The notes below the pieces were generated by a model. That model was not told the origin of the DNA, ran no database searches, and worked only from the letters and a program-made list of their open reading frames with translations. Positions 4,206-34,209 of a stretch of DNA of 40,483 nt are shown piece after piece; within the stretch, counting starts at the first letter, position 1; every line of letters begins with the position of its first letter. The translations under genes were made by a program, and so were the position numbers. Source of the stretch: Syntrophaceae bacterium (GTDB taxonomy: Bacteria; Desulfobacterota; Syntrophia; Syntrophales; Smithellaceae); NCBI GenBank assembly GCA_003142535.1, contig PLMQ01000015.1, positions 1 through 40,483 on the forward strand, written 5' to 3'.

Positions 4206-4283
4206 TTTAAGTTTATTGAATAATTAAAGGGGTAGTTTACGGCTTGCGTTTTTACGTTTTGCCGTGCTGCCCTTTTTTTGTTT

Positions 4284-4437
4284 GTGAGGCTCCAATTGTG
4301 CAAGCGAAGCGTCGCAGAATTGGCGAGCCGAACAATCCTGCATAGCAGGATTTGTGAAAGACCAATTCCGTAAGCACAGCTTTTTGGAATTGGTAAGCTG
4401 AACTATCCCGCAAAGCGGAGGGTATTATACCCGTGAT
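4284..4437 (+). repeat. Family A palindromic repeat, copy A1 (two units)
   Basis: Two divergent units lie head to tail (about 4284-4347 and 4353-4437). Each has the arms CCAATT(C/G) and (C)GAATTGG around a variable loop, followed by GAACAATCC or GAACTATCCCGC. The second unit keeps the diagnostic tail GGAGGGTATTATACCCGTGAT. The minus strand of the first unit can be read as CRIVRLANSATLRLHNWSLT, close to the peptide readings of copies A2, A3 and A6. It fills most of the gap between hisC and rpsU; 4206-4283 shows nothing else. Confidence 0.85.
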
Positions 4438-10646: not shown

Positions 10647-11399
10647 ATGCTCAACGGGGAAAAAATAGTAGTAGTAATGCCGGCGTATAACGCGGAGAAG
10701 ACTCTGCGCAAGACTTATGAAGAAGTTATGGCACAGGGCATAGTTGATTTGGTCGTGTTGGTGGATGATGCCAGTTCCGATAATACAGTCGATATTGCCG
10801 CCGGGCTTCCCCGGACAAAACTTTATATCCATGAAAAGAACAGAGGCTACGGTGCCAACCAAAAAACATGTTATGCGGCTGCGTTGCAAGAAGGCGCAGA
10901 TATCGTTATTATGGTTCATCCTGATTATCAATATACTCCCCGTCTTATTCCCGCCATGGCGTCCATAATCGGTGGCGGGCTGTATCATTGCGTTCTTGGT
11001 TCGCGCATTTTAGGCGGTTATGCTCTGAGGGGCGGGATGCCGTTGTGGAAATATATTGCCAATCGTTTTCTTACTTTTGGAGAAAATATTCTGCTGGGGG
11101 CGAAGCTTTCCGAATATCATACCGGCTATCGGGCATTTTCCCGGGAACTTCTGGAGCACCTGCCGTTAAGCGAAAATTCGGACGATTTTGTATTTGATAA
11201 TCAGATGCTGGCGCAGATTATCTGGTTTGGCTATACGATTGCGGAAGTAAGCTGTCCAACCAGTTATTTTGCGGAAGCATCATCCATAAATTTATCCAGA
11301 AGCATTAAGTACGGTTTTGGCTGCTTAAAAACAGCTTTTGTTTTCGATCTCGCTAAAATGAAATTAATATCTTCTCCGATATTTCCCGCTCATGAATAA
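10647..11399 (+). CDS. GT2 glycosyltransferase, polyprenyl-phosphate sugar synthase type
   Basis: A 250-residue GT-A glycosyltransferase resembling dolichyl/polyprenyl-phosphate mannose synthases. It has no obvious membrane helices of its own. The nucleotide-sugar binding start is [16 protein letters not shown], followed by [23 protein letters not shown] takes the place of the metal-binding Asp motif. [19 protein letters not shown] is the acceptor-side motif typical of DPM1-like enzymes. The enzyme would load a sugar on a lipid phosphate on the cytoplasmic face. Its last 8 bp overlap the start of the first GT-C/TPR gene, so the lipid-linked sugar probably feeds those proteins. The sugar is not predictable. 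Confidence 0.85.
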
Positions 11400-13206
11400 A
11401 AAATATATTTATCTGATAATAGTTCTTTTAATCGCTGCCTCCTTAGCGGCCTACGGCCGAATATTGGGTAATGAGTTTGTCAATTATGATGATAACCTAT
11501 ACATTACGGAAAACAGCCATGTTAAATCCGGCATTAATGCGGCAACAATAAAATGGGCAATGACTGATGTTCATACAGGCCATTGGCATCCTCTCGCCAT
11601 GCTGTCTCATGCGTTGGACTGGAGCCTGTTTAAAGATAACGCGGGCGGTCACCATCTGGTTAACTTGCTTTTGCATATCGGCAATACCCTTCTTTTGTTT
11701 TTTTTACTAAATAAAATTACTAATAACCTCTGGCCTTCGGCTTTTGCGGCGGCGCTGTTTGCCTTGCATCCACTGCGGGTGGAATCTGTCGCGTGGGCAG
11801 CGGAGCGTAAAGATGTTTTGAGCATGTTTTTCGGTTTATGGACTCTTTATGCCTATGCGTTTTATGTTGCCAAGCCGCAGGTATCTAAATATATTCTCTG
11901 TTTAGTATTGTTTGCTCTGGGGCTGATGGCCAAAGCGATGCTGGTAACTTTGCCTTTTGTGCTGCTACTGCTGGACTTCTGGCCGCTGAAGCGCTGGGAA
12001 AAAGAGCCGATAAAAGATATTTCAGCAGCTACCCCTGCGGTCAATCCGCAGATTAAGAAGAAAGCAAAAAAACGGAAACTGATAGTGGGAAAAGCATTGA
12101 GGGAAATCAAGCCTTTTCGGCCATCCATAGGTTTCCTTGTAGTCGAAAAAGCGCCTTTTTTCATATTAATTGCTCTCTCGATCGGCATGACATTTTATGC
12201 CGCCCAATCTGTTCGTACCATATCCAGTGCTTTATCCTTAACAACAAGAATTATTAATATGTTTGTTTCTTATGCCGCTTATATCGGTAAAATATTCTGG
12301 CCTGTTGATTTGGCTGTATTTTATCCTTATCAGCACGTTTTGCCCTTCTGGCAGTTTTTGGGAGCGCTATTAATTTTATTATTAATCAGCGCTGTTGTTA
12401 TTTTATATATCAGGAAACTGCCATTTCTTTTTGTGGGCTGGTTTTGGTATCTGGGGACGCTGATTCCGGTAATCGGGCTGGTTCAGGTGGGCCCGCAGGC
12501 TCTTGCCGACCGTTATACTTATTTGCCTTCTATCGGTATCGGGATAATGCTGGCGTGGGGGATTCCCTGTTTATTACCGAGTGAAAAAATGCGCAAAATT
12601 ATTTTAATTCCGGCGGCGGCTATTGTGCTGGTGGTTTTATCTGTACTGACCTGGCGGCAGTGTGGATACTGGAAGAACAGCATCACTCTCTATAATTATA
12701 CTTTACAAGTAACCGACAATAATGCTCTGGCTCATTATAATTTAGGCATTGCTTTACAGAATCAAGGGAATGTGGAAAAAGCAATTCCTCATTTTAAGTT
12801 AGCATTAAACATTGACCCTAGTTATGATAGTGCCCATTATAATTTAGGCGTTGCTTTACAGAATCAAGGAAATATCGAAGAAGCATTTAAGCATTTTCTG
12901 GAAACAGTACGGATCAATCCGCACTCTCCAGATGCTCACAATAGAATGGGTACTATTTTAGCAATTAATTATAAAAAATATGATCAAGCTATCTATCATT
13001 TTCGGCAAGCCCTGCAAATAGATCAATCTAATCCTGATACTCATGTGAATCTGGCTATAGCTCTCGCTAATCAAGGCGAATTAAAAGAAGCGATAGAGCA
13101 TTTTCGCACGGCAATTTACCTCAATCCTAATGACGAACAAGCACGTCAAGCCTTAAGGGAAGTTATAAATTTAGAACAAGGGCACAGGCAAAGGATAATT
13201 AAATGA
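11392..13206 (+). CDS. TMTC-like membrane glycosyltransferase with C-terminal TPRs, paralogue 1
   Basis: A 604-residue protein. Residues 1 to about 430 hold roughly ten hydrophobic segments; TPRs fill about 445-595. The first extracytoplasmic loop carries [14 protein letters not shown] (Asp33, Asp34), the acidic motif that GT-C enzymes use to bind a lipid-linked sugar. [19 protein letters not shown] and [16 protein letters not shown] are hallmarks of this bacterial relative of eukaryotic TMTC O-mannosyltransferases. A Lys-rich loop at about 205-235 is presumably cytoplasmic. The TPRs are expected on the outer side of the membrane, where they could bind the acceptor protein. The gene overlaps the GT2 gene by 8 bp and the next paralogue by 4 bp. 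Transfer of a sugar from polyprenyl phosphate to exported protein is inferred. Confidence 0.75.
12346..12450 (+). repeat. 105-bp tract identical to 14169-14273 (paralogue 2)
   Basis: By eye there is no mismatch over 105 bp between paralogues 1 and 2 here, although flanking sequence in both genes diverges. The tract encodes [20 protein letters not shown] and the following helix through the WFWY motif. Paralogue 3 has a different sequence at this place. This is the clearest of several pairwise shared tracts in the array. Confidence 0.85.
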
Positions 13207-15221
13207 AGTCATTTTCGAATAAAACCTACATATATATTATCGTTACTGTATTAATAGTTGCCTGTCTGATTACTTACGGCCGTATATTGGGGAATGGTTT
13301 TATCAATTATGATGATAACCTATACATTACGGAAAACAGCCATGTTCGATCGGGATTGAATGTAGATACGGTGAAGTGGGCATTTACGGCGGTTGTATCG
13401 AGCAACTGGCATCCTTTGACGTTCCTGTCGCATGCAATGGATTGGAGTATGTTCGGGGATAGGGCCGGCGGACATCATTTTGTTAATTTATTGTTGCATA
13501 TAGGTGGTGTCCTTCTTTTGTTTTTGTTTTTGTATAAGACTACTCGAAGTATTTGGCCGGCGGCATTCGCGGCAGCGCTGTTTGCGTTGCATCCGTTGCG
13601 TGTGGAGTCCGTGGCTTGGGCAGCCGAGCGGAAGGATGTTTTAAGCATGTTTTTCGGTTTGGGGGCTCTTTATACTTATGCGTTTTATGTAGATATACGG
13701 CATGCATCTCAATATATTCTTTGCTTAATTTTGTTTGCTTTGGCCTTGATGGCGAAGCCGATGCTGGTGACATTGCCCTTTGTGCTGCTGCTCTTGGATT
13801 ATTGGCCGTTGGAGCGCTGGAAGAAAGAGACCAAGCCTGTAACAAATGAGTCTAAAGTTGTTCCGGTGAAGAAGAAAGATAAACAGCAAAGAAGCCAATC
13901 CGCAAAGCAGAATATTTCTGTTACAGCTAAAGAGCAACCAACAATAAGTCAGCTTTTGTGGGAAAAGACACCATTTTTCATTTTGGCGGTAATATCCGGC
14001 ATTATGACTGTCTGGGCACAACAGAAGGACGGGGCTTTAGTTTCTTTCCAAGGACTATCTTTCTCTAAACGCTTCATGAACGCGGTTGTTTCATATGTTT
14101 TGTATTTGCGGAAGACTTTTTGGCCTATGGATCTGGCGATATTTTATCCTTATCAGCATGTTTTGCCTTTCTGGCAGTTTTTGGGAGCGCTATTAATTTT
14201 ATTATTAATCAGCGCTGTTGTTATTTTATATATCAGGAAACTGCCATTTCTTTTTGTGGGCTGGTTTTGGTATTTGGGAACTTTAGTGCCGGTGATTGGA
14301 ATTGTTCAGGTTGGTTCTCAATCCATGGCTGATCGCTATACATATTTACCTTCTATCGGTATTGGGATTATCTTGGCTTGGGGCATTATGAATTTATTGC
14401 CTAAGGAGAGACTGCAAAAGATAATATTAATACCGTTAGCAGTCATAGTAATTATTCTTATGACAGTTTTAACCTGGCGGCAGTGTGGTTACTGGAAAAA
14501 CAGCATCACTCTCTTTAATCATGCCCTGAATGTAACGACTGATAATTATCTGGCGCATAATTATGTGGGATTGGCTTTAGCCGCGCAAGGTAAATATCGG
14601 GAAGCTGAGTCTCAATATAAATCAGCATTAGAAATAAATCCTTATTATGAACTAGCCCATTTCAATCTCGGAATTGCCTTAGCTTCTCAGGGTAGAAACA
14701 GAGAAGCCATTGACCATTACCTCGCTGTAATTGAAACAAAAAACGATGATGATGTTACATATACAAATCTTGGTATTGCCCTGGCTGCGGAAGGCAAAAG
14801 CGAGGAGGCCATTGTTCAATACCGCAGAGCAATCAAGATCAATCCCGATAATGACAATGCCCATTACAATTTAGCCAACCTTTTCGCTAGGCATAAAAAT
14901 AATGACGAAGCAATATTACATTATAGTGAAGCTGTGAGAATTAATCCAAGTAATTTTAGAGCAATTAATAATCTCGGAGTTAATCTGGAAATCCGGCAAA
15001 AGCATGAAGAAGCAATCAAATATTATAAAATGGCGCTACAAATAACACCAAACGATGCACGCATATATTTTAATTTGGGCGTTGCATATGGTAATAATAA
15101 TAACATCAGTGAAGCAATAAATAATTTTAGAAGGGCGATTGATCTTAATCCTGAATTTAAGGAAGCTCATCTTGCTCTAAAACATGCTCTGCCATTGGAA
15201 AAGAAAAGTAACGCCAAATAA
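13203..15221 (+). CDS. TMTC-like membrane glycosyltransferase with C-terminal TPRs, paralogue 2
   Basis: The longest of the three paralogues at 672 residues. It has the same architecture: N-terminal helix, acidic loop [14 protein letters not shown] (Asp37, Asp38), [19 protein letters not shown], about ten membrane segments and a basic loop near 210-240 (KKKDKQQRSQSAKQ). The TPR domain runs from about residue 447 to 665 and has about two more repeats than its neighbours, which accounts for the extra length. Its ATG lies inside the stop of paralogue 1 (ATGA), the usual arrangement for translational coupling. Different TPR numbers with a conserved membrane domain suggest that the paralogues differ in acceptor choice rather than chemistry; that is inference. 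Confidence 0.75.
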   Translation: MKSFSNKTYIYIIVTVLIVACLITYGRILGNGFINYDDNLYITENSHVRSGLNVDTVKWAFTAVVSSNWHPLTFLSHAMDWSMFGDRAGGHHFVNLLLHIGGVLLLFLFLYKTTRSIWPAAFAAALFALHPLRVESVAWAAERKDVLSMFFGLGALYTYAFYVDIRHASQYILCLILFALALMAKPMLVTLPFVLLLLDYWPLERWKKETKPVTNESKVVPVKKKDKQQRSQSAKQNISVTAKEQPTISQLLWEKTPFFILAVISGIMTVWAQQKDGALVSFQGLSFSKRFMNAVVSYVLYLRKTFWPMDLAIFYPYQHVLPFWQFLGALLILLLISAVVILYIRKLPFLFVGWFWYLGTLVPVIGIVQVGSQSMADRYTYLPSIGIGIILAWGIMNLLPKERLQKIILIPLAVIVIILMTVLTWRQCGYWKNSITLFNHALNVTTDNYLAHNYVGLALAAQGKYREAESQYKSALEINPYYELAHFNLGIALASQGRNREAIDHYLAVIETKNDDDVTYTNLGIALAAEGKSEEAIVQYRRAIKINPDNDNAHYNLANLFARHKNNDEAILHYSEAVRINPSNFRAINNLGVNLEIRQKHEEAIKYYKMALQITPNDARIYFNLGVAYGNNNNISEAINNFRRAIDLNPEFKEAHLALKHALPLEKKSNAK

Positions 15222-15255
15222 TATTTATAACTATATAAATTGCTATGGAGCGTCC

Positions 15256-17073
15256 ATGACTAAAAGATACACATACCTGATAGTTATAATATTGGTGGTT
15301 GTTTCCTTAGTGGCTTACGGCCGAATTTTGGGGAATGATTTTGTCAATTTTGATGACAATGTATATATAACGGAGAATAGCCATGTTCGATCGGGCTTGA
15401 ATGTAGAGACAATTAAGTGGGCATTTACGGCGGTTGTATCGAGCAATTGGCATCCGCTGACGCTAATTTCCCATGCGCTGGACTGGAGTTTGTTTAAAGA
15501 TCATGTGGTCGGCCATCACCTGGTTAATTTGTTGCTGCATATATTCAATGTTATTTTGCTGTTTCTATTTTTAAATAAGATTACCAAAAACCGCTGGCCT
15601 GCTGCTTTTGCTGCTCTTCTATTTGCTTTGCATCCGTTGCGGGTGGAATCAGTAGCCTGGGCAGCGGAGCGTAAAGATGTTTTGAGCATGTTTTTCGGTT
15701 TATGGACTCTTTATGCCTATGCGTTTTATGTCGCCAAGCCGCAGGTATCTAAATATATTCTCTGTTTAATACTGTTTGCTCTGGGGCTGATGTCCAAACC
15801 GATGCTGGTGACATTGCCGTTCGTTTTGCTTTTGCTTGATTTCTGGCCGCTGGAACGCTGGAAAAAAGGATTAACACCGGAAGCAAAAAAGCCGGTGCAG
15901 AACGGCGCAGTACCGCTCAAGAAAAAGAGGAAACAGCTTAAAGCAACTTCTTTAGTAGAAAAAAATGTTGCCACTTCCATAGGAGGGAGCGCTACTATTA
16001 TTTACCTCTTCACGGAAAAGGTGCCGTTTATTTTCTTTGCCCTGATGTCCAGCATTATAACCATTTGGGCGCAGAATAAGGGTGGCGCTGTGGCCTCATT
16101 GGAGAGGGTACCATTCTCGGAACGCTTGATCAATGCAATTGTTTCCTATATTTCATATCTGGGGAAAACTTTTTGGCCTGTTGATTTGGCGGTGTTTTAT
16201 CCCTACGAACACGCCTTTACCGCAGGGGGATTATTGGGTGCAGTTTTAATTTTACTAGTTATAAGTATTTTTGCCATTTATTTAGTAAAGAAGGCACCTT
16301 TTTTTCTCACAGGCTGGCTCTGGTATCTGGGAACTCTGGTTCCGGTAATCGGACTGGTTCAGGTGGGCAGGCAGTCAATGGCTGACCGTTACATGTATTT
16401 GCCTTCTATCGGCATTGGCATTATTATTGTTTGGGGTTTGGCTTATCTGTTGCCGCAGGAGAAAATACGCAAATTTATTTTTGTTCCGGTAGCGGCAATT
16501 GTGTTGATGATTCTGTCATTTTTAACCTGGCAGCAGTGTGGCTATTGGAAAAACAGCATTACACTTTTTGAACATACTTTGCAGGTAACGAAAAATAATT
16601 ATCTGGCGCATACCAATCTCGGCATTGCTTTGGCGGCCGACGGCAAAATTGACCAGGCAATGGCCCACTATGATGCGGCGTTAAAGATTAAGCCTAATGA
16701 TGATAACGCGCATTATAATTTGGGCAATATTTATATGCGGCAGGGAAATAATGAAGAAGCGATCAAACACTTTCAAGCGGCTGTGCGGCTTAATCCAACA
16801 TATTTTCCCGCTCATAATAATTTAGGTGTTCTATTCGAAAAGCAGACAAAAAATCATGAAGCCATTGAGCATTATCGGCAAGCATTTCTTTTAGAACCGA
16901 ATAATCCCGGAATCAATTTTAATTTAGGAGTGGCTCTGGCGAGAAGCGGGAAATTAAAAGAAGCAATTGAGTATCTGCGGATGTCTGTTTATCTTAACCC
17001 CAATGACGAGCAAGCCCGCCGCGTTTTGCGGGAAGCTACGGCATTGGCAAAAAGTCAGGAAAAAAATAATTAA
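15256..17073 (+). CDS. TMTC-like membrane glycosyltransferase with C-terminal TPRs, paralogue 3
   Basis: 605 residues from ATG 15256. This start was chosen over an upstream TTG (15184) because GGAG lies 5 bases before it and the N-terminus then aligns with paralogue 1. The acidic loop is [14 protein letters not shown] (Asp33, Asp34), and [19 protein letters not shown] is retained. TPRs run from about 448 to 595, with consensus-like pieces such as AHYNLGNIYMRQGNNEEAI. The N-terminal loop is nearly identical at DNA level to paralogue 2, while the segment around 15658-15800 is nearly identical to paralogue 1. The stop overlaps the convergent rpe stop by 4 bp. The function is as for paralogue 1. 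Confidence 0.75.
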   Translation: MTKRYTYLIVIILVVVSLVAYGRILGNDFVNFDDNVYITENSHVRSGLNVETIKWAFTAVVSSNWHPLTLISHALDWSLFKDHVVGHHLVNLLLHIFNVILLFLFLNKITKNRWPAAFAALLFALHPLRVESVAWAAERKDVLSMFFGLWTLYAYAFYVAKPQVSKYILCLILFALGLMSKPMLVTLPFVLLLLDFWPLERWKKGLTPEAKKPVQNGAVPLKKKRKQLKATSLVEKNVATSIGGSATIIYLFTEKVPFIFFALMSSIITIWAQNKGGAVASLERVPFSERLINAIVSYISYLGKTFWPVDLAVFYPYEHAFTAGGLLGAVLILLVISIFAIYLVKKAPFFLTGWLWYLGTLVPVIGLVQVGRQSMADRYMYLPSIGIGIIIVWGLAYLLPQEKIRKFIFVPVAAIVLMILSFLTWQQCGYWKNSITLFEHTLQVTKNNYLAHTNLGIALAADGKIDQAMAHYDAALKIKPNDDNAHYNLGNIYMRQGNNEEAIKHFQAAVRLNPTYFPAHNNLGVLFEKQTKNHEAIEHYRQAFLLEPNNPGINFNLGVALARSGKLKEAIEYLRMSVYLNPNDEQARRVLREATALAKSQEKNN

Positions 17074-17797: not shown

Positions 17798-18066
17798 GTG
17801 AAACTCCAATTCCGAAAGCGAAGCGAAGCGGAATTGGTAAGTTGAACAATCCCGCATAAGCGGTGGTCGTGAAACTCCAATTCCGAAAGCGAAGCCTAGC
17901 AGGGAACCCCGGCGTATAACCTGAAGGTCACAAGTGCCCGGCGCATGCCGGGCGAAGCGAATTGAAGTTTGTTAGTCGAATTATCCCGTCTAAGCGGGGG
18001 TCGAATATCCCGCAGTATGCTGCTGAATCGGTTCCTAAAACTTGCTTTGGGGTTTATACCAGTGAT
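17798..18066 (+). repeat. Family A palindromic repeat, copy A2 (compound) with nested module D
   Basis: The first unit, from GTGAAACTCCAATTCCG at 17798, ends at about 17868. A second unit starts at about 17870. It is interrupted by module D (TATAACCTGAAGGTCAC within 17912-17935) and by a CCCGGC-GCAT-GCCGGG hairpin (17938-17953). It resumes with TCGAATTATCCCG and ends TTTATACCAGTGAT. The minus-strand frame of the first unit reads CGIVQLTNSASLRFRNWSFT. It fills most of the 395-bp gap between rpe and waaA; the rest of the gap (17730-17797 and 18067-18124) has no gene. Confidence 0.85.
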
Positions 18067-20369: not shown

Positions 20370-20432
20370 GATAAATAACCTCTACCCCGTTAGAGAAAGT
20401 CACCAACTCTTGTCGAGTATTAATAGTTCAAA

Positions 20433-20577
20433 TAATACCACTTCGCTTTATTTGGCCAACTTTGTTGGCTGCGTCATCGGCTTCCTCAGCGTATGTACAA
20501 CGCGTGACCTTTAGGTTATACGCCTCCAGTACCTCCTCCTTGCCGCCTCGTTATCCTTTGAAAGCGAAACGGTATAA
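20433..20577. repeat. Family B inverted-repeat element, copy B1 (145 bp)
   Basis: It starts TAATACCACTTCGCTTTA and ends GAAAGCGAAACGGTATAA, imperfect terminal inverted repeats of about 18 bp. It is collinear without gaps with copy B2 (34065-34209), sharing AACTTTGTTGGC and CTCCTCCTTGCCGCCTCG. Internally it carries module D in opposite orientation to B2 (GACCTTTAGGTTATACG, 20506-20522). It has no coding capacity of note. It lies between porA and porB. Confidence 0.85.
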
Positions 20578-23003: not shown

Positions 23004-25106
23004 TTAATTTACCCGCTGCTTTGGCGCGGCTTTCCCCGTTTTTCTTCTGGCGGCAATCAGGATGATGCCGGAAATTATTATGGTCAAAATTATTCCGGTA
23101 ATCAAAAGCACCAGTATTGTCGGCAGCTTTCCCCGTGCTACAAGATCTACGGGATTCCAGCTCGGTTTTACCGTTATGCGTCCGAGTTTGCCTTTGTATT
23201 TATCCGGCAGATTGGGCAGGCCATCGCCGTTTATATCCGGGAACGATTTTACGTATTCGATTGTTCCCCGCCATTCTTTTACTTCCTGAATTCCGGGCCT
23301 GGCCTTATCCGCGTCTACTCGCAGCGCCGCCAGGTTGTTGACAGCTTTGCCGTATCTGTTCTTCGGGACGATATCCAGAAAATGATACGTGTAGTTGCCG
23401 ACCACTTTTAAGAAAGTCGCATTATAAATGTTAGCGGCAACCCGATAGAGTTTGGTATTTGATCTGCTATAATCAAATGGTTTATAGCCATCCTCTTCAC
23501 TGCCTATTTCGATATTTGTGACCCGGTCAAAAATAACGCGGTGCGGGTTATAGGTAAAACGTGCGCCGGATATTTGGAGAAAATAATCATAACCTTTACG
23601 CGGCTGCACGCTGGTTAAAATTTCGAGCGCCCTTTTGATTTCATAGCCATAGAGGTAAAAGGAAATCAGCGGGTAGCCCATCGTATCATCCGTGCCGATG
23701 CCCAGAGGTATGGTGCGGAATAAATCGCCCACAGTGATAAGGCCTGTTTTCCCTTTAAGCAGGGAATCACGGATGACACCGTTTGATTCCACGGCGATAA
23801 CAACACGGCTTAACGGGTCATTCTTATTGGAGTCAATTTTATTGATATACCAGCGGATGGAATCGGCAATCAGATTGCCTAGCGGTGACTCCTCTTCGGC
23901 TATTGTCAAATCCCATTTTGTTGCGGCGATAGTTTTATCGTAATTAAGACCGCGCTTTTCCAGAAAGTCCGTATCAATTTTCTTTTTGAATTCGTCTATT
24001 GTGTTTTGTATGGTTTCATCACCTCTAATGGAGCTGTCGATAACTACCGTTTTATAGTTTTTTAATTTTACCTTTTTATTTTCATAGGCGATATCCAGAA
24101 CTCCCACGTGTTTTCCATAAACCCAGGCATGAACAATAATGGTATCATCAACCCGCACGGGGCTATCATGCAGGGCATGGGTGTGGCCGCTGACGATGAT
24201 GTCGATTCCCTTGACCTTGTGGGCAAGAATTTCATCCTCCGATTTTTTGGGGTCTTTATCCAGTCCGCTGTGCGAAAGGCAGATGACAATATCGGCCTCT
24301 TCCTGTTCCCGCAGGATACTCACCATTTCCCGAGAAACTTCAATCGGGTCGCGAAAAGTTACCGGAGCGGCAAAGGGCGAAACTTCCGCAGCATTTTTGC
24401 CCATAATGCCGAAGATGCCTATTTTAATGCCGTCACGCACCACAACGGTATATGTTTTCACATCCGTTTCCTGAAAAGCCTCCTCCAGCGAATCATCAGC
24501 GGCGCTCACGCCACTGAATATGGCACTGGCAAAAACTATTTGCGGCATTCCACCTTTGGCCTTTGCCGTTCTTAAAATGCGGGCCAGCCCCGCTGGTTTG
24601 AAATCGAATTCGTGATTGCCCAGTGTAATGACGTCATAGCCCATTTGTTTCATCAACCGTAATTCAAAAGCTTCTTCGCGCGCCAGCATATGAAAAAGGG
24701 AACCCATAAGGAAATCGCCGGAATCCAGAGTCAGCACAGGATTTTTTCTTGCTTTCTTTGTGTCGTTTATTAAAGTGGCAATACGCGACCAGCCGCCGAC
24801 AGTGGCATCGGTTTTGGTATCATGGGGGTTATAGTCACTTTCCGGAGAAAATCCCTGTAAGTGCGAATGCAGGTCGTTGGTGTGGATGATGGTCAGCAGC
24901 TTTTCCGCGGCGAATAAATTGGTAGAAAAAAATAATACGGCAAAAAATGTTATTGTGAAACTCCAATTCCGTGTGCTTGGCACTACGGAATTGGTAAGTT
25001 GAACAATCCCGCGCAGCGGAGGGTATAATACACGGCAGCTTGTTGCGATAAAGTTTTCAAAGCTTGCTTTAGGGTTCATACCCGTGATCGTGCGTAACAG
25101 TTTCAT
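23004..25106 (-). CDS. 5'-nucleotidase family protein (UshA-like), membrane-anchored, with repeat-interrupted signal peptide
   Basis: A 700-residue exported bifunctional metallophosphatase. The calcineurin-like domain shows TIIHTNDLHSH, LDSGDFLMGS, GNHEFDF, CLSHSGLD and SGHTHALH, all metal-binding motifs. A C-terminal substrate domain follows (about residues 400-620). Near the end a hydrophobic helix (ILVLLITGIILTIIISGII) and a basic tail form a membrane anchor. It probably hydrolyses nucleotides or related phosphoesters outside the cytoplasmic membrane. ATG 25106 has a strong GGGGAGGAG 5 bases upstream. Residues 1-6 are MKLLRT. Residues 7-51 are encoded by repeat A3; then ITFFAVLFFSTNLFA-AEK supplies the hydrophobic core and cleavage site. 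Removing the repeat-coded residues gives a normal signal peptide. Whether the extended form is exported is unknown. Confidence 0.88.
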   Translation of the reverse strand: MKLLRTITGMNPKASFENFIATSCRVLYPPLRGIVQLTNSVVPSTRNWSFTITFFAVLFFSTNLFAAEKLLTIIHTNDLHSHLQGFSPESDYNPHDTKTDATVGGWSRIATLINDTKKARKNPVLTLDSGDFLMGSLFHMLAREEAFELRLMKQMGYDVITLGNHEFDFKPAGLARILRTAKAKGGMPQIVFASAIFSGVSAADDSLEEAFQETDVKTYTVVVRDGIKIGIFGIMGKNAAEVSPFAAPVTFRDPIEVSREMVSILREQEEADIVICLSHSGLDKDPKKSEDEILAHKVKGIDIIVSGHTHALHDSPVRVDDTIIVHAWVYGKHVGVLDIAYENKKVKLKNYKTVVIDSSIRGDETIQNTIDEFKKKIDTDFLEKRGLNYDKTIAATKWDLTIAEEESPLGNLIADSIRWYINKIDSNKNDPLSRVVIAVESNGVIRDSLLKGKTGLITVGDLFRTIPLGIGTDDTMGYPLISFYLYGYEIKRALEILTSVQPRKGYDYFLQISGARFTYNPHRVIFDRVTNIEIGSEEDGYKPFDYSRSNTKLYRVAANIYNATFLKVVGNYTYHFLDIVPKNRYGKAVNNLAALRVDADKARPGIQEVKEWRGTIEYVKSFPDINGDGLPNLPDKYKGKLGRITVKPSWNPVDLVARGKLPTILVLLITGIILTIIISGIILIAARRKTGKAAPKQRVN
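24955..25088 (-). repeat. Family A palindromic repeat, copy A3 (134 bp), inside the 5'-nucleotidase reading frame
   Basis: On the plus strand it runs from GTGAAACTCCAATTCCG to TTCATACCCGTGAT. It is gap-free collinear with copy A6. It contains the CCAATTCCGT/ACGGAATTGG stem and GGGTATAATAC. On the minus strand it is translated as the 45-residue stretch beginning ITGMNPKASFENF and ending STRNWSFT. Unlike its relatives it sits within a gene, between the start codon and the signal-peptide core. Confidence 0.92.
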
Positions 25107-25156
25107 CTTTCTCCTCCCCGGTAAGACATTAAAGTTTTTATTACAAATATTCCACC

Positions 25157-30323: not shown

Positions 30324-30533
30324 GATATTTTTCAGCCGTGCGAGCGATAAATTCGCCTTCGTGGTCAATAGTTTTAGCAATACCTATGCCTCATAATAAT
30401 AAATAGTTGGCAAAATTAGTTTAATTATTTAATATCAAACGATTATTAGTTTTGGTCTTGATAATAACTTAAAGCAAAATGCTATCTTTAAATAGTTATT
30501 TGGTGTGGCTATAGCAACACACTCTTGATAATT
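30324..30533. other. AT-rich intergenic stretch
   Basis: Part of the 875-bp gap between the divergent porin and acs genes. It is AT-rich with many short TTAATT/AATAATAA runs. I see no gene, RNA structure or clear site in it. Confidence 0.4.
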
Positions 30534-30722
30534 TCATACCATTTTGCTTTCTTTGACTAACTTTGTTGGCAGAAACTGCCCGGCGTATAACCTAAAGGTC
30601 ACGAGTAACCTAATCACCTAATAAACTAACCACCTAAAGGTGGCAAGAGGTGACAAGAGGTCACGAGTAACTTAAAGGTCACAAGTCGGAATTGCGCTAC
30701 GCTTTCGGAATTGGAGTTTCAC
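30534..30722. repeat. Composite repeat: family B half (B3), module D cluster, family A arm (A5)
   Basis: 30534-30570 matches the first 37 bp of family B, including AACTTTGTTGGC. From 30583 comes module D (TATAACCTAAAGGTCAC), then a run of related pieces with CCACC-TAAA-GGTGG and repeated AAGAGGT(G/C)AC to about 30685. From 30684 to 30722 an inverted family A end follows: CGGAATTGCGCTACG through GGAATTGGAGTTTCAC. It looks like a mosaic of three repeat types. Confidence 0.75.
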
Positions 30723-31036: not shown

Positions 31037-33007
31037 ATGGCGGATGTAAATGTTCAACTAAAGGAAGTCTATCCGGTACCGGAAAAAGTAAAAAAGACGG
31101 CCTTTGTCAGTGGCAGAGCAGCTTATGATAAGCTGTGGAAAAGATCCATCGAGGAACCCGAAGCTTTTTGGGGGGAAATAGCGGGTGAATATGTCGAGTG
31201 GTTCAAGAAATGGGATAAGGTTATTGATTATAACTTTAACGTGAAAAAAGGCCCCATTTATGTAAAATTCTTTGATGGTGGCAAACTCAATGTATCTTAT
31301 AACTGCTTGGATAAACAGTTAAAAACACGCGGCGACAAGGTTGCCATCCAATGGGAAGGCAACGAACCCGGCGAACAAAAATCTTTTACTTACAAGCAGC
31401 TGCATCAGGAAGTCTGCAAGTTTGCCAACGTTCTGAAAGCCAATGGCATTAAAAAAGGCGACCGTGTTTGTCTTTACATGCCGATGGTTCCGGAACTGGC
31501 CATTGCCATGCTGGCCTGCACCCGCATCGGCGCCATTCACAACATCGTCTTCGGCGGTTTCAGTTCGGACGCTTTGCGCGACAGAATTCAGGATTCCACA
31601 TCCAAGCTGGTTGTGGTCTGTGACGGAATTTTCCGCGGCGCCAAAGCCGTGCCGCAAAAAGCAAGCGCCGATGAAGCGCTGAAAACCTGTCCCTCAGTTA
31701 AAACCTTAATAGTAGTTAAAAGAGTCGGCGACAAAATCAAGTGTGACTGGAATGCCGGACGCGACAAATGGTGGCACGAAGAAATGGCGAAAGTTGACGC
31801 CAAATGCGAACCCGAATGGATGGACGCAGAAGATCCTCTTTTTATTCTTTACACTTCCGGTTCCACCGGCAAACCCAAAGGCGTTATGCATACCACTGGC
31901 GGCTATCTCGTCTTTGTCGCTTATACCCATAAAATGATATTTGATTATCATGAAAATGATATTTACTGGTGCACGGCCGATATCGGCTGGGTAACCGGCC
32001 ACAGCTACATTGTTTACGGACCCCTTTGCAATGGCGCCACCTCGATTATGTTTGAAGGCGTTCCCAATTATCCGACTTACAGCCGTTTCTGGCAGGTTGT
32101 GGAAAAATACAAGGTAACTATTTTCTATACCGCTCCGACCGCCATCCGCGCCATTGCCAAAGAAGGTAACGACTGGGTGAAAAAAGCCAATATCTCCTCT
32201 CTGCGCATTCTGGGAACAGTGGGCGAACCCATTAACCCGGAAGCATGGAACTGGTATTACAATGTCATCGGCCGCGGCGAATGCCCCATTGTGGACACCT
32301 GGTGGCAGACCGAAACCGGCGGCATCCTGATTACACCGCTGCCCGGCGCCATTGATATTAAACCGGGCATGGCGACACTGCCCTTCATGGGCGTGGAGCC
32401 CGTGCTGGTGGACGATGAAGGAAAAGAGTTTACCGCAACAGTAGCCAGCGGCGCGCTGTGCATCAAACGTCCCTGGCCGGGAATTATGAGGGGCGTTTAC
32501 GGCAATCCCAAGAGATTCCAGGAAACTTACTTTGAGCAGTTCCCCGGATACTATGTAGCCGGTGACGGCGCGAGGCGCGATAAAGACGGCTATTATCAAA
32601 TCACTGGACGTATTGACGATGTTATCAATGTTTCCGGTCACCGCATGGGAACAGCCGAAGTCGAAAGCGCGCTGGTTGCCCATAAGTCGGTTGCGGAAGC
32701 GGCAGTTGTCGGTTTCCCCCATGACATCAAGGGACAGGGCATTTACGCTTATGTAACTCTGAAAACCGGTGTCGCCAAATCCGATGATTTGAAAAAAGAG
32801 CTCGTGGCGCACGTGCGCACCTTAATCGGCCCGATTGCCACACCGGATAAGATTCAGTGGGCGGATGCTCTGCCGAAAACACGCAGCGGCAAGATCATGC
32901 GCCGCATTCTGAAGAAAGTTGCCGCCAATGATCTCGGTGCGCTGGGTGATACCAGCACCCTGGCTGATCCCACGGTAGTAGATGACATCGTAAAGAACAG
33001 GGTATAA
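31037..33007 (+). CDS. acs: Acetyl-CoA synthetase (AMP-forming)
   Basis: 656 residues from ATG 31037, preferred over ATG 31028 because GGGAGG (31021-31026) is then about 10 rather than 1 base away. It belongs to the ANL superfamily and interconverts acetate + ATP + CoA with acetyl-CoA + AMP + PPi. Motifs: P-loop [31 protein letters not shown] with the Trp that limits the acyl pocket to acetate/propionate, [28 protein letters not shown], and [14 protein letters not shown] with the acetylatable Lys at about residue 619. In Syntrophus a related enzyme has been reported to run in the ATP-forming direction. The same role here is inference. A terminator follows directly; the gene stands alone. Confidence 0.95.
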
Positions 33008-33011
33008 ACTG

Positions 33012-33050
33012 AAAGCCCGATTCTCCTGAAACCAGGGGATCGGGCTTTTT
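33012..33050 (+). terminator. Rho-independent terminator of acs
   Basis: AAAGCCCGAT (33012-33021) pairs with ATCGGGCTTT (33039-33048). An inner stem CTCCTG/CAGGGG extends it, and T residues follow. It starts 5 bp after the acs stop. Confidence 0.93.
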
Positions 33051-33054
33051 CATT

Positions 33055-33188
33055 GTGAAACTCCCATTCTGAAAGCGCAGCGTAGCGGAATGGGTAAGTT
33101 GAACAATCCTGCGCAGCATAGGGTATAATACCCCGCAGCGAGTTCGCGAATAGTTTCCAAAGCTTGCTTTGGTGTTCATACCCGCGAT
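33055..33188 (-). repeat. Family A palindromic repeat, copy A6 (134 bp)
   Basis: The cleanest intergenic copy, from GTGAAACTCCCATTCTG to TTCATACCCGCGAT. It has the same length as A3 with no gaps. Its minus strand has an open frame reading GMNTKASFGNY then RRIVQLTHSATLRFQNGSFT. It begins 5 bp after the acs terminator. The rest of the gap to etfB (33189-33296) holds only the etfB leader. Confidence 0.9.
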
Positions 33189-33296
33189 AAGTGTGCAACA
33201 GGAGATAAATTTAAGACAGGATCTGTTAAAAAGAGAAGGCGCTAAAGCTCTGAAAAAGAATGCTGAAGTGTACAAAAAGATAAGGAGGTTGAGACT

Positions 33297-34067
33297 GTGA
33301 ACATTATTGCCTGCGTTAAACAAGTTCCGGATACCGAAGCCCAGATCAAAGTAAAAGCCGATGGGTCCGGTATCGAAGAAGGCCAGATCAAATGGATTAT
33401 GAATCCTTATGATGAGTACGGTGTAGAAGAAGCACTGCGACTCAAAGAAAAGAATGGTGGCGATGTTACGATTGTATCTCTCGGTCCCGCCCGGGCGATG
33501 GAAACAATTCGAACTGCTCTGGCGATGGGCGCTGATAAAGGAGTCCATGTCTGTGACCCCGCGCTCGACAATGCCGATGCTTATGTTACGGCAGCAGCAC
33601 TGGCAGCGGTAATTAAAGGCCTGCCCCATGACATTATTTTTTGCGGCCAGCGCGCCGTTGATGATGATTCCGGTCAGGTCGGCCCAATTCTTGCCGAACT
33701 TCTGGGGATCCCGCAATTAACCATTGTCACAAAAACAGAATATGCCGCCAATACAATCAAGGCAATCAGGCCGATCGAAGGAGCTCAACTCTTGATTGAA
33801 ACCAGCCTGCCCTGCGTAGTAACTGCACAAAAAGGACTTAACGAGCCCCGCTATGCATCGCTTCCCGGTATTATGAAAGCCAAGAAAAAGCCGGTGGATG
33901 TGAAAAACGCGGCGGCGCTGGGCATAGACACCCAAGCGAAAGCCAAGGTTGCCAAGTTTATCCCGCCGCCAGCTAGAGCTGCCGGGAAAATAATTTGCGG
34001 AGACGATCCGGCGCAAAAGGCAACGGAAGTAGCCCGGTTACTTAGGGAAGAAGCAAAAGTCATCTAA
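33297..34067 (+). CDS. etfB: Electron transfer flavoprotein, beta subunit
   Basis: A 256-residue EtfB that begins MNIIACVKQVPDTEAQIKV. It contains NPYDEYGVEEALRLKE, VSLGPARAMETIRTALAMGAD and the ETF-beta signature DDDSGQVGPILAELLG, followed by PCVVTAQKGLNEPRYASLPGIM. Together with EtfA it accepts electrons from acyl-CoA dehydrogenase. The start is GTG 33297, supported by AAGGAGG 8 bases upstream. Its stop codon TAA (34065-34067) is also the first three bases of repeat B2. Whether the ETF is bifurcating cannot be read reliably; the adjacent membrane Fe-S quinone reductase favours a non-bifurcating role. Confidence 0.95.
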   Translation: MNIIACVKQVPDTEAQIKVKADGSGIEEGQIKWIMNPYDEYGVEEALRLKEKNGGDVTIVSLGPARAMETIRTALAMGADKGVHVCDPALDNADAYVTAAALAAVIKGLPHDIIFCGQRAVDDDSGQVGPILAELLGIPQLTIVTKTEYAANTIKAIRPIEGAQLLIETSLPCVVTAQKGLNEPRYASLPGIMKAKKKPVDVKNAAALGIDTQAKAKVAKFIPPPARAAGKIICGDDPAQKATEVARLLREEAKVI

Positions 34068-34209
34068 TACCAATGCGCTTTCGTTGGCTAACTTTGTTGG
34101 CATCGTCGTCGGCTTCGGGAACGTATAACCTGAAGGTTACGGGTTAGTAATACGCCTGCGGAGCCTCCTCCTTGCCGCCTCGTTATCCTTAGAAAGCGAT
34201 GTGGTATTA
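34065..34209. repeat. Family B inverted-repeat element, copy B2 (145 bp)
   Basis: It starts TAATACCAATGCGCTTTC and ends GAAAGCGATGTGGTATTA, imperfect terminal inverted repeats. It has the same length as B1 with no gaps. Module D lies inside at about 34121-34140 (TATAACCTGAAGGTTAC). It fills the space between etfB and etfA, and its first bases supply the etfB stop codon. Confidence 0.87.

What the first reader, a model, noticed from the sequence alone, without database searches (positions are those of the whole stretch)
24955..25106. In-frame palindromic repeat inserted into a signal peptide
The 5'-nucleotidase keeps a strong ribosome binding site, ATG and MKLLRT. The frame then runs through a complete family A repeat (45 residues) before ITFFAVLFFSTNLFA and the mature protein. 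Deleting exactly 135 bp joins MKLLRT to the hydrophobic core, giving a textbook signal peptide. The 134-bp element plus one base preserves the frame. This is the behaviour known for Rickettsia palindromic elements, which insert into genes and are translated; I know of no such description for this lineage. There is no later ATG in frame before the core, although a GTG inside the repeat could start a shorter form.
Basis: partly seen in the sequence, partly recalled or inferred. Interest (0 to 1): 0.88.

Follow-up and report, generated by a model that had tools for sequence, protein, structure and literature searches.

The report
Mobile repeat translated inside signal peptide
A small palindromic mobile DNA element has inserted, in frame, into the export signal of a bacterial nucleotidase gene, and the same element family sits in frame inside at least a dozen other genes of this bacterial order, much as described for Rickettsia but in an unrelated group.

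Summary
Confirmed. The 700-aa 5'-nucleotidase ORF (window 25106..23004, minus) reads MKLLRT, then 45 residues encoded by a dispersed repeat, then the hydrophobic core ITFFAVLFFSTNLFA. Ten orthologues (58-72% identity) lack exactly 45 residues there. Removing them restores the usual 24-residue start found in the closest orthologues.

The repeat has 52 full-length copies in 819 kb of this genome, mostly intergenic. It is spread over the family (37 genomes) and thinly over the order (9 more). Its three hairpins covary strongly, and two copies 99% identical with unrelated flanks in one relative show recent movement.

In-frame, stop-free insertion is recurrent: I found 13 gene cases in five genomes, including RlmD, ComEC, MntP, a DsbA-like protein and a second signal peptide, an outer-membrane protein hit independently in two genera. 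One antisense copy breaks a HepT toxin gene, so frame is not always spared.

It works like Rickettsia palindromic elements but fails their terminal-inverted-repeat and taxonomic criteria: a new member of a known kind. The mobilising enzyme is unknown; export is untested.

The parts
23004..25106 (-). 5'-nucleotidase / metallophosphoesterase gene (700 aa) carrying the insertion
   Evidence: ORF; Pfam Metallophos 72-311 and 5_nucleotid_C 400-563; conserved motifs and no accelerated divergence
25111..25119 (-). Shine-Dalgarno GGGGAGGAG before ATG1
   Evidence: sequence; duplex energy -11.0 kcal/mol against 0.3 and 2.6 for internal starts
25089..25106 (-). start and n-region MKLLRT left of the insertion
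   Evidence: MKLLR conserved in orthologues
24954..25088 (-). family A palindromic repeat copy, translated as 45 residues ITGMNPKASFENFIATSCRVLYPPLRGIVQLTNSVVPSTRNWSFT
   Evidence: 45 matches in own genome; 45-residue gap in 10/10 orthologues; fold z -3.72
25021..25083 (-). hairpin 1 of the repeat: outer stem GGGTATGA / TTATACCC
   Evidence: 95.5% of cells paired
25008..25020 (-). hairpin 2 TCCGC-TGC-GCGGG
   Evidence: 91.8% of cells paired
24954..25005 (-). hairpin 3, long stem around CCAATTCCG/CGGAATTGG
   Evidence: 16 of 21 pairs with two-sided changes
24909..24953 (-). signal-peptide core ITFFAVLFFSTNLFA, displaced to residues 52-66
   Evidence: aligns with the orthologues' signal peptides; maximum 12-residue hydropathy 2.17
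33053..33188 (-). second full-length family A copy in the window, between the acetyl-CoA synthetase-like gene and the electron-transfer flavoprotein gene
   Evidence: 80% identity
28254..28391 (-). family A copy of the second hairpin-3 subtype (CAAACTT..AAGTTTG)
4282..4433 (-). two partial family A copies in tandem
17798..18066 (-). composite of partial family A copies

Best explanation
A non-autonomous, hairpin-forming mobile repeat inserted into the first codons of an ordinary secreted 5'-nucleotidase gene. Because the insertion adds 135 bp, is free of stops in that phase and fell just before the hydrophobic core, the gene stayed open. Translation most likely starts at the original ATG, runs through the repeat, and gives a precursor whose signal peptide has an n-region of about 50 residues instead of about 5. 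The core and cleavage region are intact, so export and removal of the whole extended signal by signal peptidase probably still happen and the mature enzyme is unchanged. Shown here: repeat identity, empty orthologous sites, intact frame, start-site strength, recurrence in other genes. Inferred: translation through the insert, export, cleavage. The repeat is best read as a selfish element tolerated where it does little harm.
For: Orthologues lack exactly 45 residues. The repeat is dispersed in the genome and across the family. Strong RBS at ATG1 and none at codons 10 and 42. The downstream gene diverges at the same rate as uninserted orthologues (distance to outgroup L036 0.356 against 0.341 and 0.347) and keeps the GNHE, SGHTH and ESNG motifs. 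The same event recurs: RlmD has 45 residues inserted where 13 orthologues read straight through; an outer-membrane protein signal peptide was hit independently in two genera; also ComEC, MntP, DUF116, DsbA-like, HprK-like, two methyltransferases, a GT2-DUF4922 protein and a 562-aa membrane protein. Mobility: copies 99.3% identical over 143 bp with unrelated flanks in G022. Structure kept by compensatory change.
Against: No transcript or protein data. No congeneric genome without the insert was available, so the event is not dated and the exact edge is ambiguous by 2-3 bp. The gene comes from a draft assembly. The AlphaFold model of this protein was poor (mean pLDDT 56) and says nothing about the insert. 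No signal-peptide predictor was run, only hydropathy. A 50-residue n-region is unusual.
Confidence: 0.87

Rival explanations
1. Translation starts inside the repeat (ATG codon 10 or GTG codon 42), so most or all of the insert is a leader and the signal peptide is short (MPSTRNWSFT + core).
For: Both codons are in frame. The GTG42 form would have an 8-residue n-region with net charge +1 and the intact core.
Against: No Shine-Dalgarno for either (+0.3 and +2.6 kcal/mol against -11.0 for ATG1); GTG42 lies inside hairpin 3. In the RlmD, ComEC and MntP cases the insert lies inside the protein, where a later start cannot rescue the gene.
Confidence: 0.08
2. The repeat is removed from the message or skipped by the ribosome (intron-like or bypass element), so the protein is never enlarged.
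For: It is strongly structured (z -3.72) with covarying stems.
Against: No Rfam intron match. If it were removed, insertions would not need to be in frame and stop-free, yet 13 gene insertions are; the one out-of-frame case sits in a dispensable HepT toxin gene that looks destroyed.
Confidence: 0.03
3. Residues 7-51 are an original N-terminal region of this nucleotidase subfamily and the likeness to a repeat is secondary.
For: The ORF is seamless.
Against: All 10 aligned orthologues have no residues there and the DNA has dozens of relatives at unrelated sites.
Confidence: 0.01
4. The element has a positive role here, for example its hairpins right after the start codon tune expression, or its peptide changes secretion.
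For: Structured RNA close to the start; early-codon insertions before a hydrophobic segment recur (nucleotidase, outer-membrane protein twice, DUF116).
Against: Tolerance explains the same pattern, since the n-region is the most permissive place in a protein; most copies are intergenic.
Confidence: 0.1
5. Assembly artefact in a draft genome.
For: Draft assembly of 70 contigs.
Against: 135 bp is within a read length; the window contig is 133 kb; the same kind of insertion appears in independently assembled genomes, twice in the same gene family.
Confidence: 0.02

Closest known systems
Rickettsia palindromic elements (RPE)
   Same: About 105-146 bp, palindromic, many copies, carry an open frame, inserted in frame into unrelated protein genes and translated; the RPE-bearing guanylate kinase was shown to be active (PMC2229807, PMC10969869)
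   Different: RPEs are described with 12-bp terminal inverted repeats forming one long stem-loop and are specific to Rickettsia. Here there are three separate hairpins, no terminal inverted repeat and a different bacterial group; in the sampled copies most are intergenic. Sequence homology to RPEs could not be tested.
Enterobacterial RU-1/ERIC and RU-2/YPAL
   Same: Small mobile repeats with open frames fused in frame to genes; RU-2 forms part of the predicted signal peptide of Yersinia YPO1552 (PMC2759123)
   Different: In YPO1552 the repeat helps to build the signal peptide of a putative new exported protein. Here it is wedged into an existing, conserved signal peptide without supplying the core. 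No relation in sequence is claimed.
Correia/NEMIS and other bacterial MITEs
   Same: Non-autonomous structured repeats, intergenic and intragenic (PMC2229807)
   Different: MITEs have terminal inverted repeats and target duplications; none could be shown here.
REP/BIME elements with RAYT (Y1) transposases
   Same: Palindromic, no clear terminal repeats, high copy number
   Different: REPs are 20-40 bp. Y1 transposase presence does not follow repeat load: G012, G015 and G027 have many copies and no PF01797 hit.

Membership tests
Rickettsia palindromic elements | Length about 105-146 bp | tested here: met
   Standard copies about 130-141 bp; shorter and longer variants exist
Rickettsia palindromic elements | Inserted in frame in unrelated protein genes | tested here: met
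   13 cases in five genomes; three with empty orthologous sites
Rickettsia palindromic elements | Terminal inverted repeats closing one long stem-loop | tested here: not met
   Three independent hairpins; ends AATCACGGG and TTTCACNAATAAA are not inverted repeats
Rickettsia palindromic elements | Confined to Rickettsia | tested here: not met
   Found in the window's own genome, family and order
Rickettsia palindromic elements | Sequence homology to an RPE family | not testable with these tools
   No RPE model or Rickettsia chromosome on hand; Rfam and the plasmid collection give nothing
Rickettsia palindromic elements | Insert translated in the mature product | not testable with these tools
   Frame open through the insert, no proteome
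MITE | Terminal inverted repeats | tested here: not met
MITE | Target-site duplication | tested here: inconclusive
   AAT on the left in most of 63 copies and AATAAA commonly on the right; an AAT duplication or fixed ends are both possible
MITE | Non-autonomous, many copies, mobile | tested here: met
   99.3% identical copies with unrelated flanks
REP/RAYT | Y1 transposase partner in the genomes that carry it | tested here: not met
   Repeat-rich G012, G015 and G027 have no PF01797 hit, although these are draft genomes
Group I/II intron | Intron structure | tested here: not met
   No Rfam match at the gathering score; only chance mir-932 hits below it

The most novel reading that the evidence does not exclude
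The family is a second, independent origin of Rickettsia-like 'coding' palindromic repeats: a structured mobile element whose reading frames stay open, that prefers AATAAA-like sites (so it often enters at an Asn-Lys codon pair with 135 bp, a frame-neutral length), and that repeatedly adds 35-50 residue segments to housekeeping proteins and signal peptides across a bacterial order, some of which have been put to use.
Probability: 0.2. Interest if true: 0.8.

Novelty: new member of a known kind. Interest (0 to 1): 0.6.

Why it matters
In-frame palindromic repeats in protein genes have been treated as mainly a Rickettsia peculiarity; a 2024 review says RPEs took it to an unusually high frequency (PMC10969869). 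Here an unrelated family does the same in another order, in genes as constrained as rlmD and comEC and twice in signal peptides. That gives a second natural experiment on how mobile DNA adds protein segments, with many empty orthologous sites for comparison. It also matters for annotation: such proteins look as if they have long odd N-termini or loops, and signal-peptide predictors may miss them.

Tried and rejected
The genome-contig scan gave only distant named relatives, none from the window's own species. Y1 transposase as mobiliser: no correlation; one Y1 gene 340 bp from a copy at G000:C57:20607 is compatible with chance. Plasmids: no match. Rfam: nothing real. Open-frame excess in copies (1.12 open frames per copy against 0.59 in shuffles) is not counted as evidence of coding selection, since copies share ancestry. 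ORFs in L008, L012, L016, L024, L027, L029, L200 and L201 that overlap a copy were rejected as in-gene cases: they look antisense or spurious, or the gene plausibly starts at or after the copy. AlphaFold of the nucleotidase was uninformative; that of RlmD has a confident core with the insert region disordered (residues 183-243 below 50). Literature searches for Smithella or Syntrophus repeats found nothing relevant.

Full report
Observation. The gene at 25106..23004 on the minus strand is an open frame of 700 codons with 5'-nucleotidase and metallophosphoesterase domains. It begins MKLLRT, continues with ITGMNPKASFENFIATSCRVLYPPLRGIVQLTNSVVPSTRNWSFT (45 residues, window 24954-25088), and then enters ITFFAVLFFSTNLFAAEKLL.

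Empty site. A search of 59 related genomes found orthologues. Reading upstream of the mature part and aligning ten of them shows M-K-x-x-R followed directly by the hydrophobic core; the window protein has exactly 45 extra residues. With them removed, the window start (MKLLRTITFFAVLFFSTNLFAAEK, 24 residues) has the same length as L032 (MKLLRIVIIFAAVFISTNLLAAEK) and L034. The rest of the protein keeps its catalytic motifs and is no more diverged from outgroups than uninserted orthologues are, so the gene looks functional.

The repeat. The copy has 45 DNA matches at E<=0.01 in its own 2.93-Mb genome. A profile built from ten copies gives about 120 hits, of which 52 are full length, in 819 kb sampled. 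Most copies are intergenic. Two copies in relative G022 are 99.3% identical over 143 bp with unrelated flanks, which shows recent movement. Over 155 genomes of the class, 46 have matches: 37 in the window's own family and 9 in other families of the same order. No plasmid and no real Rfam match was found.

Structure. The copy folds better than all 200 shuffles (z -3.72). In 20 aligned copies, three hairpins keep 92% of cells paired against at most 49% when slid, with 20 pairs changed on both sides and a covariation score of 0.369 against at most 0.116 slid; 0 of 500 shuffles reach it. Hairpin 3 exists in subtypes whose stems differ wholesale (CCAATTCCG/CGGAATTGG, CAAACTTCAG/CTGAAGTTTG, GGCT..AGTC) and still pair. 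The structure therefore matters at the nucleic-acid level, probably for movement (inference). The left edge is nearly invariant AAT|CACGGG and the right edge TTTCAC|NAATAAA. In RlmD and the outer-membrane protein, removing 45 codons leaves AAT AAA in place, so AATAAA is probably target sequence, and the left AAT is either an end of the element or a 3-bp duplication (inference).

Recurrence in genes. In the same genome the repeat lies in frame in: an outer-membrane protein (L005: MLTK, 45 residues, NKLIVVLSVLLIF; again a signal peptide); RlmD (L019; TIGR00479 312 bits against a cut-off of 183.55; 13 orthologues run straight through the junction); two methyltransferases (L018, L013); an HPr-kinase-like protein in antisense orientation (L011); ComEC (L190, 873 aa); and a FrnE/DsbA-like protein (L202), where the insert follows the last residues that align with the FrnE structure. 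In relatives: the same outer-membrane protein hit independently (L162: MK, double element, IKFLSKNFLS), a GT2-DUF4922 protein (L189), MntP (L192), a 562-aa membrane protein (L191) and a DUF116 protein with the insert after MRKTAKK (L198). Empty sites were shown for the nucleotidase, the outer-membrane protein and RlmD; the other cases rest on the continuous frame and, in most, domain matches. One copy breaks a gene: an antisense insertion with a stop and frame shift splits the HepT partner of an MNT-HepT pair. In the sampled 819 kb, four full-length copies lie in frame in genes and this one breaks its gene. That is too few for a firm rate, but it fits selection keeping frame where the gene matters and argues against splicing or bypass.

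How it works. ATG1 has a near-ideal Shine-Dalgarno (-11.0 kcal/mol, in the range of the best neighbours); codons 10 and 42 have none. The insert adds net charge +3 and no segment as hydrophobic as the core, so the predicted precursor is a signal peptide with an n-region of about 50 residues and an unchanged core and cleavage region. Export of such a precursor is plausible but not shown. The AlphaFold model of RlmD has a confident core with the insert region as a disordered loop, consistent with tolerance; the nucleotidase model was too poor to use.

Compared with what is known. RPEs of Rickettsia do the same thing, and one RPE-bearing enzyme has been shown to be active (PMC2229807). [quoted passage not shown] The present family meets the length and in-frame criteria of RPEs but not the terminal-inverted-repeat or taxonomic ones, and homology could not be tested. 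It works like an RPE; it is not filed as one. No paper on such repeats in this lineage was found in the library searched, which is not proof of absence.

Verdict. The finding is real and its interpretation mostly right. It is one case of a wider phenomenon in this order. It is new in its lineage and element family, but not a new kind of thing.

Noticed in passing
window 20428-20575, 34060-34207, partial 30531-30571: A second, unrelated repeat family (79-85% identity between copies) bounded by AATACC...GGTATT.
   Followed up: no
L105 13743-13850 (G000:C7:113743-113850): An antisense family A copy splits a HepT-like toxin gene next to an MNT nucleotidyltransferase, with a stop and frame shift: a toxin-antitoxin pair apparently disarmed by the repeat.
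   Followed up: partly
L164, L165, L167, L168, L169, L170 (orthologues of the outer-membrane protein of L005): No ATG/GTG/TTG lies in frame before the signal-peptide core in most of these; a ribosome binding site is followed by a conserved ACG codon, suggesting a conserved ACG start.
   Followed up: no
L162 1273-1480 (G022): The same outer-membrane protein gene has an independent double family A insertion right after ATG AAA in another genus.
   Followed up: partly
window 33053-33188: A family A copy contributes to a spurious 273-aa antisense ORF (32895-33716), a trap for annotation.
   Followed up: partly
window 11392-17073: Three tandem paralogous membrane proteins with TPR-like tails (69-82% DNA identity in long stretches).
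   Followed up: no
G000:C57:20181-20936 (L106 5181-5936): A Y1-type transposase gene lies about 340 bp from a partial family A copy on the same strand; could be chance.
   Followed up: partly
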